A stretch of 46,136 bases of DNA. Origin: Draconibacterium orientale. GTDB lineage: Bacteria; Bacteroidota; Bacteroidia; Bacteroidales; JAADGE01. The stretch covers positions 1 to 46,136 of the forward strand of contig DYMH01000011.1 in assembly GCA_020721645.1 (NCBI GenBank), given 5' to 3'. The notes beneath the pieces were generated by a model. The model saw only the letters and a program-made list of their open reading frames with translations, was not told where the DNA came from and searched no databases. Within the stretch, counting starts at the first letter, position 1, and each line of letters begins with the position of its first letter. This document shows, one piece after another, positions 19,756-21,638 of the stretch. The translations under genes and the position numbers were made by a program.

Positions 19756-19792
19756 AGAGATATTAAATCAATGTCGTATAGCCTCATTTAAA

Positions 19793-19826
19793 GTTCTTTG
19801 AAAAAAATATATATAACTTTGTAAAG
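19793..19826. repeat. Left subterminal inverted repeat of IS110
   Basis: GTTCTTTGAAA and TATAACTTTGTAA, separated by an A/T spacer, are matched in reverse complement at 21323-21349 (spacer shorter by 6 nt). Subterminal inverted repeats are described for the IS1111 branch of the IS110 family. Confidence 0.7.
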
Positions 19827-20005
19827 CCCCGACAGTAAGCCGATATTAACCCGGTGCATAAAAGCCCGACGTTAAGCGTGGCTGCAGAATGTCTTGTAGA
19901 AATTACCGGTGAAAGATTGATTGTCCTCAATTCTTATCCCGCATGTGAGTATGCACAGCAACAAACATTCTGCCGAAAGGCACATAATTTAAAAAACTTT
20001 GAAAA
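19827..20005 (+). ncRNA. Candidate bridge RNA in IS110 leader
   Basis: These 179 nt between the left repeat and the transposase ATG carry no gene. They can fold: GCAGAATGT (19884-19892) pairs perfectly with ACATTCTGC (19965-19973), enclosing about 70 nt with small hairpins (GCAT/ATGC at 19941-19954, TTGA/TCAA around 19918-19930). The part before it is locally GC-rich for this genome. In the IS110 family, structured noncoding RNAs from such end regions bind the recombinase and pair with target and donor DNA (bridge RNA, known from IS621). Assignment here rests on position, length and structure only. Confidence 0.45.
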
Positions 20006-21373
20006 ATGAAAACAAAATCAAAGAAAGCCAAATCGTCCGACAACATGATTTCCATGCCCGTTGTCAATCCCCACGCAGCAGGTATTGACATAGGAAGTAA
20101 AAGTCATTTTGTTTGTGCGGCTCAGGACAATGTCAAGGAATTTGCTGTTTTTACCTCAGATTTACACGAAATTGCAAGACATTTGAAAGATTGCGGAATA
20201 AAAACTGTTGCCTTAGAATCCACGGGATTTTATTGGCGTCCGCTGTTTGTGCTTTTGCAAGATTACGGTTTTGAAGTAATTTTGGTCAATGCCCGACATC
20301 TGAAAAATGTCAAAGGACATAAGACCGATGTGGTGGACAGCAGATGGTTACAATTGTTGCACAGTATCGGATTGCTTTCAAACAGTTTTCAACCGGATGT
20401 TTTTACACATCAACTCCGAAACTACACGCGGCATCGCAAAGCTTTGATTGAAGATGCAAGTCGCTTCATCACAAAGATGAATAAAACCTTGGTGTTGATG
20501 AATATTCAACTCAAAGCCGTGTTGCGTGACATCGCCGGCGAATCAGGAATGCGTGTCATCCGAGCAATTTTGGCGGGCGAACGCGATGCCCGAAATTTGG
20601 AACCGCTCGTGAGTGAACTCTGTCAATCCGACCGAAAAGACATTTTAAAAGCTTTGACCGGCGATTGGCGTGAAGAGTATCTTTTTGAACTTCAGGATTG
20701 TTACGATTTGTACCATTATTATTGGCAAAAAATCAGAAACATCGACAAAGAAATCGAACGAATGTTGGAAATACACTCAAAACAGGTGCAACACGAAGTT
20801 TCCAAAAAAGATTACAAACCGGACAAAAAAAAGCAACATCAAAGAAACGATCCGCAAATCGACATCGAAGGTTTTGCTTATGAAATTACCGGAGGTGTCG
20901 ATTTATTGCAAATTCCGGGTGTCGGTATCAATACAATTTTGACCATGATGTCCGAAACCGGATTTGATTTGTCCGAATTTAAAACCGCCAAACATTTTGT
21001 TTCATGGCTCGGATTTGCACCGAATCGAAAAATCAGCGGAGGAAAAGTTCTGTCGTCCAAAACTCGAAAAAAAACCAATCCGCTGTCAAAAATTATCCGA
21101 GATGCCGCCAATGCTGCCGGAAACAGCAAAAGCCGGCTTGGTGATTTTTTTAGAAGATTATCATACCGAAAAGGCAGGATGGTTGCTATTACTGCCACGG
21201 CAAGAAAAATCGGAGTGATAATTTATACGATGTTAAAAAACAAACAACCGTTCTGTTACGAATATTCGCAAGATGACAGTCAACGGATTAAAACAGTAAA
21301 AATTAAAAACGTTTTAAAAACCTTACAAAGTTATAATATTTCAAAGAACGATATTGAAATGGCTTGGGCTTAA
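20006..21373 (+). CDS. IS110-family transposase (DEDD recombinase)
   Basis: 455 residues. The N-terminal RuvC-like domain has all four acidic residues: D28 (GIDIGS), E71 (ALESTG), D108 and D111 (KTDVVD). The C-terminal Transposase_20 domain starts near 300 with LLQIPGVGINTILTMMSETG and holds the likely nucleophile S344 (RKISGGK). Between them lies a long charged helical linker (about 235-290) including a Lys-rich stretch. Nothing is truncated, so the element may be active. The last codons lie inside the right inverted repeat. The gene probably starts at 20006, because the next Met (M14) is closer to the first catalytic residue but leaves the basic N-terminus out. Confidence 0.93.
   Translation: MKTKSKKAKSSDNMISMPVVNPHAAGIDIGSKSHFVCAAQDNVKEFAVFTSDLHEIARHLKDCGIKTVALESTGFYWRPLFVLLQDYGFEVILVNARHLKNVKGHKTDVVDSRWLQLLHSIGLLSNSFQPDVFTHQLRNYTRHRKALIEDASRFITKMNKTLVLMNIQLKAVLRDIAGESGMRVIRAILAGERDARNLEPLVSELCQSDRKDILKALTGDWREEYLFELQDCYDLYHYYWQKIRNIDKEIERMLEIHSKQVQHEVSKKDYKPDKKKQHQRNDPQIDIEGFAYEITGGVDLLQIPGVGINTILTMMSETGFDLSEFKTAKHFVSWLGFAPNRKISGGKVLSSKTRKKTNPLSKIIRDAANAAGNSKSRLGDFFRRLSYRKGRMVAITATARKIGVIIYTMLKNKQPFCYEYSQDDSQRIKTVKIKNVLKTLQSYNISKNDIEMAWA
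21323..21349. repeat. Right inverted repeat of IS110, inside the gene
   Basis: Reverse complement of the left repeat at 19793-19824. It encodes the residues LQSYNISKN near the C-terminus of the transposase, so coding sequence and transposition signal overlap. Confidence 0.7.
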
Positions 21374-21492
21374 ACCCTTGCTGTTTCTTATAATGCTGCA
21401 ATTTTATTAGATGAAAAATCTAATCGGAATTGCTTTGAAATAACTCACGAGATATTGTTATATGTGAGTTAAGGGGTATATTTGCTGTTCGG

Positions 21493-21591
21493 CTTAGGCT
21501 CCGCCTAAGTCGAGGTTATCATGACAGGCTCTGCCTGTCAAAGCAGGGCAGAGTCTTGCAAAATAAGCCCGACTGAGACAGAGCCTCAGTC
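21493..21591. repeat. Cluster of three palindromic hairpins
   Basis: Three hairpins in 100 bp: CTTAGGC/GCCTAAG (21493-21509), TGACAGGC/GCCTGTCA (21522-21540) and GACTGAG/CTCAGTC (21571-21591). Base composition is richer in GC than the flanks. They resemble REP-type intergenic palindromes and lie right after the IS110 tail. Confidence 0.7.
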
Positions 21592-21638
21592 GAACAAATG
21601 CTTAACTAAACAATATTGGATATTAAATTCTAAAAAAG

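What the first reader, a model, noticed from the sequence alone, without database searches (positions are those of the whole stretch)
19827..20005. Structured IS110 leader as a bridge RNA candidate
The 179-nt gap before an intact DEDD/Ser recombinase gene holds a perfect 9-bp long-range stem and smaller hairpins. Length and place fit the bispecific bridge RNA known from IS621. If both loops can be matched to target and donor ends, this is a new programmable recombinase-RNA pair from Bacteroidota.
Basis: partly seen in the sequence, partly recalled or inferred. Interest (0 to 1): 0.7.

Follow-up and report, generated by a model that had tools for sequence, protein, structure and literature searches.

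The report
IS110 bridge RNA, reversed guide order
The stretch in front of this jumping gene encodes a conserved folded guide RNA whose loops match the DNA where the element sits and the element's own right end; its guide strands come in the opposite order to the best-known relative, IS621, so this branch of RNA-guided recombinases is wired differently.

Summary
In detail: a perfect 9-bp stem (19884-19892/19965-19973) closes a structured RNA directly 5' of an intact 455-aa IS110 recombinase. The bridge-RNA reading is well supported by computation. Across 8 elements the fold keeps 97% of its pairs, 11 of them with changes on both sides; a covariance model from these finds the RNA at the same place in relatives down to about 33% protein identity. 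The element runs from core AG 19780-81 to AG 21467-68, and its joined flanks match an uninterrupted dispersed repeat in the same genome. The RNA matches the left target, right target and right element end, and these matches change together between elements (permutation P 7e-5, 4e-4, 6e-4). Two of them repeat in 25-30 relatives not used for the model (0 of 20,000 permutations). No guide for the left element end was found. Published work ties that order to IS1111 elements, yet this element has the upstream RNA and long recombinase of IS110 and lacks IS1111-type subterminal repeats. Transcription, binding and transposition are untested. New variant of a known kind.

The parts
19782..21468 (+). 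IS110-family element, 1687 bp (from after the left core to the end of the right core)
   Evidence: Junctions shared with relatives; joined flanks equal an uninterrupted repeat copy, L012
19768..19781 (+). Left target TCAATGTCGTATAG ending in core AG (19780-19781)
   Evidence: repeat copies
19814..19821 (+). TAACTTTG, Bacteroidota-type -7 box (TAnnTTTG); expected RNA start near 19828
   Evidence: Sequence and recurrence in relatives; consensus from general knowledge
19826..19982 (+). Bridge RNA, approximate extent; short terminal stem GCC 19826-19828 / GGC 19979-19981
   Evidence: Covariance model R1 matches 19837-19974; terminal stem co-varies in relatives
19838..19883 (+). Target arm (first stem-loop)
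   Evidence: Conserved helices 1 and 2
19846..19850 (+). Right-target guide TTAAC, pairs with GTTAA at the right junction
   Evidence: P 4e-4 over 9 elements; anchored test P 5e-5 over 21
19870..19876 (+). Left-target guide CGTTAAG (flank here CGTATAG; CGTTAAG in other repeat copies)
   Evidence: P 7e-5; 0 of 20,000 permutations in 30 independent elements
19884..19973 (+). Donor arm, closed by the 9-bp stem 19884-19892 / 19965-19973
19942..19949 (+). Right-end donor guide CATGTGAG, matches ATGTGAG of the right end
   Evidence: P 6e-4; 0 of 20,000 permutations in 25 independent elements
20006..21373 (+). IS110 recombinase, 455 aa, DEDD and S344
21459..21468 (+). Right end TATATGTGAG with core AG 21467-21468
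   Evidence: Conserved in relatives
21469..21618 (+). Right target: remainder of the dispersed repeat, ending in the inverted terminal copy 21601-21618

Best explanation
About 19826-19982 encodes a bridge (seeker) RNA of an IS110-family element of the long-recombinase branch. It comes from the left end, just 5' of the recombinase gene. Its first arm reads the target: the 5' side pairs with the top strand right of the cut, and the 3' side is identical to the top strand left of the cut plus core AG, so it pairs with the bottom strand. Its second arm reads the donor: the 3' side matches the right end of the element. The recombinase would hold target and circle junction together on this RNA and exchange strands at AG, placing the element in the terminal inverted repeat of a dispersed intergenic repeat. 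Relative to IS621 the resolved guides sit on the opposite sides of both arms, as if the RNA-and-gene cassette had been turned around with respect to the element's ends; core AG is then the reverse complement of IS621's CT. Shown by computation: fold, covariation, ends, target, three of four guides and their order. Inferred: transcription, complex formation, strand exchange, programmability.
For: Structure: 96.9% of cells paired against 36-46% when slid, 0/500 shuffles on all measures; terminal stem P 5e-4. Model from 8 elements finds the RNA directly 5' of the gene, same strand, in distant relatives. Guides: P 7e-5, 4e-4, 6e-4 over 9 elements; left target and right end repeat in independent elements, 0 of 20,000 permutations, controls not significant. 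Ends and empty site. Recombinase intact and structurally closest to IS621 and ISCro4. IS621 control with the same convention gives the published order.
Against: No guide for the left element end found. The left-target guide here has two mismatches to its own flank. Weak opposite signals (D1 segment against right end P 0.002-0.009; rc(T2) against right flank P 0.04-0.06). Single intact copy, no circle or transcript seen. Permutations ignore shared ancestry.
Confidence: 0.9

Rival explanations
1. A bridge RNA of ordinary IS621 layout (left-target guide 5', right-target guide 3'), the reversal being an artefact of strand or end assignment.
For: Upstream RNA as in IS621 and ISEc21; weak signals for rc(T2) against the right flank and a D1 segment against the right end.
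Against: 5' side against left flank P 0.58-0.70, while the 3' side matches it in 0 of 20,000 permutations. The same reading of two IS621 loci gives the published order. Ends are fixed by an empty site.
Confidence: 0.04
2. The leader is a 5' UTR regulator of the recombinase (attenuator or translation control), not a guide.
For: Structured leader directly before the start codon.
Against: Does not explain loop segments that change together with the flanking DNA and the right end. It could act in addition.
Confidence: 0.03
3. A decayed, inactive copy: the RNA and gene are relics.
For: One intact copy only, two mismatches between guide and flank, degenerate solo ends elsewhere in the genome.
Against: Complete ORF with all catalytic residues; the RNA has the best score of all matches to the model, though it was one of the eight it was built from. 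Inactivity would not change what the RNA is.
Confidence: 0.15

Closest known systems
IS621 recombinase and bridge RNA (PMC11208160; structures 8wt6-8wt9)
   Same: DEDD/Ser recombinase fold; RNA from the left end upstream of the gene; two arms, target then donor; guides for both target strands; insertion into a dispersed repeat
   Different: Guide order reversed in both arms; core AG, not CT; recombinase 455 aa, not about 326; -7 box inside the left end; left-end donor guide not found
ISEc21 seekRNA (IS110 type, PMC11187229)
   Same: Upstream RNA; no IS1111-type subterminal repeats
   Different: ISEc21 has the bottom-strand match 5' of the top-strand match; the opposite is found here. Its transposase is 358 aa
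IS1111-group seekRNAs (ISEc11, ISKpn4, ISPa11; PMC11187229)
   Same: Top-strand complement precedes bottom-strand match; TG as well as SG occurs at the serine position
   Different: Their RNA is downstream of the gene, their transposases 330-350 aa, and they have 11-13 bp subterminal inverted repeats

Membership tests
IS110 family (broad) | DEDD RuvC-like domain and C-terminal PF02371 domain with conserved serine | tested here: met
   S344 here, T in several close relatives
IS110 family (broad) | Long non-coding end that encodes a conserved structured RNA | tested here: met
IS110 family (broad) | Circular intermediate and scarless excision | not testable with these tools
   Needs PCR or long reads
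Bridge RNA | Loop matching both target strands, co-varying with the target | tested here: met
Bridge RNA | Second loop matching both donor ends | tested here: inconclusive
   Right end met; left end not found
Bridge RNA | Binds the recombinase and is required for recombination | not testable with these tools
   Experiment needed
IS621-type bridge RNA | Left-target guide 5', right-target guide 3'; right-end guide (LDG) on the 5' side of the donor loop | tested here: not met
   IS621 control
IS1111 group | Subterminal inverted repeats of 11-13 bp | tested here: not met
   Longest matches 7-9 bp with one mismatch, at inconsistent positions
IS1111 group | RNA region downstream of the gene | tested here: not met
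   RNA upstream
IS1111 group | Transposase of 330-350 aa | tested here: not met
   455 aa
IS1111 group | Top-strand complement 5' of bottom-strand match in the RNA | tested here: met
   published order in PMC11187229

The most novel reading that the evidence does not exclude
The long-recombinase branch of IS110 as a whole uses an upstream bridge RNA with reversed (IS1111-type) guide order and, in many members, an AG core. Guide order would then not follow the IS110/IS1111 split, and the RNA cassette must have been turned around relative to the element ends at least once. Tested in Bacteroidota; seen by inspection only in alphaproteobacterial and cyanobacterial plasmid copies.
Probability: 0.75. 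Interest if true: 0.65.

Novelty: new variant of a known kind. Interest (0 to 1): 0.58.

Why it matters
Bridge recombinases are being developed as programmable DNA-insertion tools, and the design rules come from a few elements (IS621, ISEc21, some IS1111). A branch with the opposite guide order, an AG core and a longer protein would need different design rules and widens the choice of cores. It also makes an evolutionary question testable: whether guide order, RNA position and subterminal repeats change independently of one another.

Tried and rejected
Rfam: only a tRNA in the whole window. Viral contigs: no relatives. Other full copies in the same genome: none, only degenerate ends. Left-end donor guide: ungapped scan (max-statistic P 0.04) and rc(D1) tests gave nothing convincing. 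The unanchored test of the right-target guide was not significant (P 0.05-0.07); the anchored one was but is post hoc. The 13-bp inverted repeat 19812-19824/21323-21335 was considered as a subterminal repeat and rejected: one copy lies inside the 3' end of the gene and relatives do not keep it. MAFFT misaligned the terminal stem, so it was tested outside the alignment. In one search the left end of L057 was placed at an upstream repeat of the same motif; one search corrected it. Its left-target letters are the same, so the scores stand, but the 1802 bp printed there for L057 should read 1690.

Full report
Observation. On its own it is only mildly unusual (59 of 2000 shuffles contain one), but the 179-nt leader folds better than all 200 dinucleotide shuffles (z -2.72). 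The ORF 20006-21373 is a complete 455-aa IS110 recombinase (PF01548 and PF02371; NF033542) with D28, E71, D108 and D111 invariant in a 22-sequence alignment and S or T followed by G at 344-345. Its AlphaFold2 model (pLDDT 83.9) matches the IS621 and ISCro4 recombinases best among solved structures (E 1.6e-11 to 6.4e-10).

Ends and target. Five relatives came from genome contigs and more from whole-genome searches. Comparing junctions gives a left junction AATGTCGT(A/T)TAG|CC and a right junction TATATGTGAG|TTAAGG that share AG. The element is 19782-21468, 1687 bp. Joining the flanks gives TCAATGTCGTATAGTTAAGGGGTATATTTGCTGTTCGG; the same genome holds an uninterrupted copy, TCAATGTCGTATAGTTAAGAAACGTATTTGTTGTTCGG (L012). 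The target is the end of a dispersed repeat with terminal inverted repeats CAATGTCGTTTAGTTAAG: 79 sites with at most 3 mismatches, against 11 for the reversed control pattern.

RNA structure. Eleven pairs have changes on both sides, no shuffle reaches any of the five measures, and sliding drops pairing to 36-46%. A terminal stem, up to 13 bp in relatives and only 3 bp here, also co-varies (P 5e-4). A covariance model from the eight finds the RNA in further relatives, with E-values from 1e-6 to 1. All are on the gene's strand directly 5' of it; three overlap the estimated start of the gene by 6-18 nt. It also finds the RNA in plasmid-borne copies from Nostoc, Sphingomonas and Acetobacter. A TAnnTTTG box at 19814-19821 lies just before the RNA and recurs in relatives; that this is the Bacteroidota -7 consensus is general knowledge, and no good -33 box is at the usual spacing.

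Guides. Left flank and RNA change together: CGTTTAG in both (L025-L027), AAAATAG (L057), TCTGCAAG (L028), CAAAAAG (L058), TAAAGTAG (L059), TGAGTAG (L029). The window has CGTATAG in the flank and CGTTAAG in the RNA; CGTTAAG occurs in other copies of the target repeat. The right flank pairs with the 5' side of the same arm (GTTAA with TTAAC). The right end matches the 3' side of the donor arm (ATGTGAG, ATATGAG or ATGTAAG in both). Permutation P values over 9 elements are 7e-5 (left target), 4e-4 (right target) and 6e-4 (right end). In elements not used to build the model, left flank (n=30) and right end (n=25) are matched better than in any of 20,000 permutations, with control strands and sides not significant. 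An anchored test of the right flank over 21 elements gives P 5e-5.

Order. In IS621 the left-target guide is 5' and the right-target guide 3', and the guide for the right end (left donor) is on the 5' side of its loop (PMC11208160). Two E. coli IS621 loci read with the same convention give that order. In the present family every resolved guide is on the opposite side, and the IS621-order prediction for the left flank fails (P 0.58-0.70). Core AG is the reverse complement of IS621's CT, as expected if the RNA-and-gene cassette is turned around relative to the ends. Siddiquee et al. (PMC11187229) report this order for IS1111 elements and the other for the IS110-type ISEc21. Here it occurs with an upstream RNA, a 455-aa recombinase and no IS1111-type subterminal repeats. 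No paper found in the library describes this combination. Priority is uncertain: the figure of PMC11208160 that draws the guides of ISPpu10, ISAar29 and ISHne5 could not be read, and preprints are not held.

What is not shown. A left-end donor guide was not found. Weak signals of the opposite sense exist for a D1 segment against the right end (P 0.002-0.009) and for rc(T2) against the right flank (P 0.04-0.06); with several tests made they get little weight. Permutation tests ignore shared ancestry, though the independent set reaches down to about 33% identity. No transcript, complex, circle or transposition was tested.

Verdict. This is a bridge RNA of an IS110 element in Bacteroidota. The reversed guide order is the notable feature: a new variant of a known kind.

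Noticed in passing
window 21467-21618 and about 70 places in the genome: A dispersed intergenic repeat of about 150 bp with terminal inverted repeats CAATGTCGTTTAGTTAAG and inner palindromes; the IS110 sits in its left terminal repeat. L026, from another genome, shows the same terminal sequence about 100 bp past its right end.
   Followed up: partly
G000:C26:7408-7568 (L022), C26:18371-18419 (L023), C5:19830-19881 (L024): Degenerate solo ends of the same element: one right end with a scrap of the gene's 3' end, and two left-end scraps, two of the three with recognisable target sequence. They point to past transposition in this lineage.
   Followed up: partly
window 19812-19824 and 21323-21335: A perfect 13-bp inverted repeat, TATAACTTTGTAA / TTACAAAGTTATA: the first copy is the -7 box before the RNA, the second lies in the 3' end of the gene on the other strand. 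Not kept in relatives; chance or an antisense promoter.
   Followed up: partly
recombinase residue 344 (window 21035-21037) and aligned relatives: The residue aligned with the catalytic serine is S here and in L027 but T in L025, L026, L028, L057, L058 and L031, as reported for some IS1111 members.
   Followed up: partly
L105 and L106 (E. coli IS621 control loci), 300 nt before the gene: Both carry a partial duplication of the IS621 left end; in L106 the second copy begins right after the CT of the RNA's own left-target guide, which looks like insertion of the element into its own guide. These hits were picked because they matched in two pieces.
   Followed up: no
L108, L110, L111 (alphaproteobacterial plasmids): Relatives sit in sequence resembling an IS3-type orfA/orfB junction at a TAAAAAAC motif that recurs in their RNA at the left-target guide position, suggesting the same reversed order outside Bacteroidota; by inspection only.
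   Followed up: no
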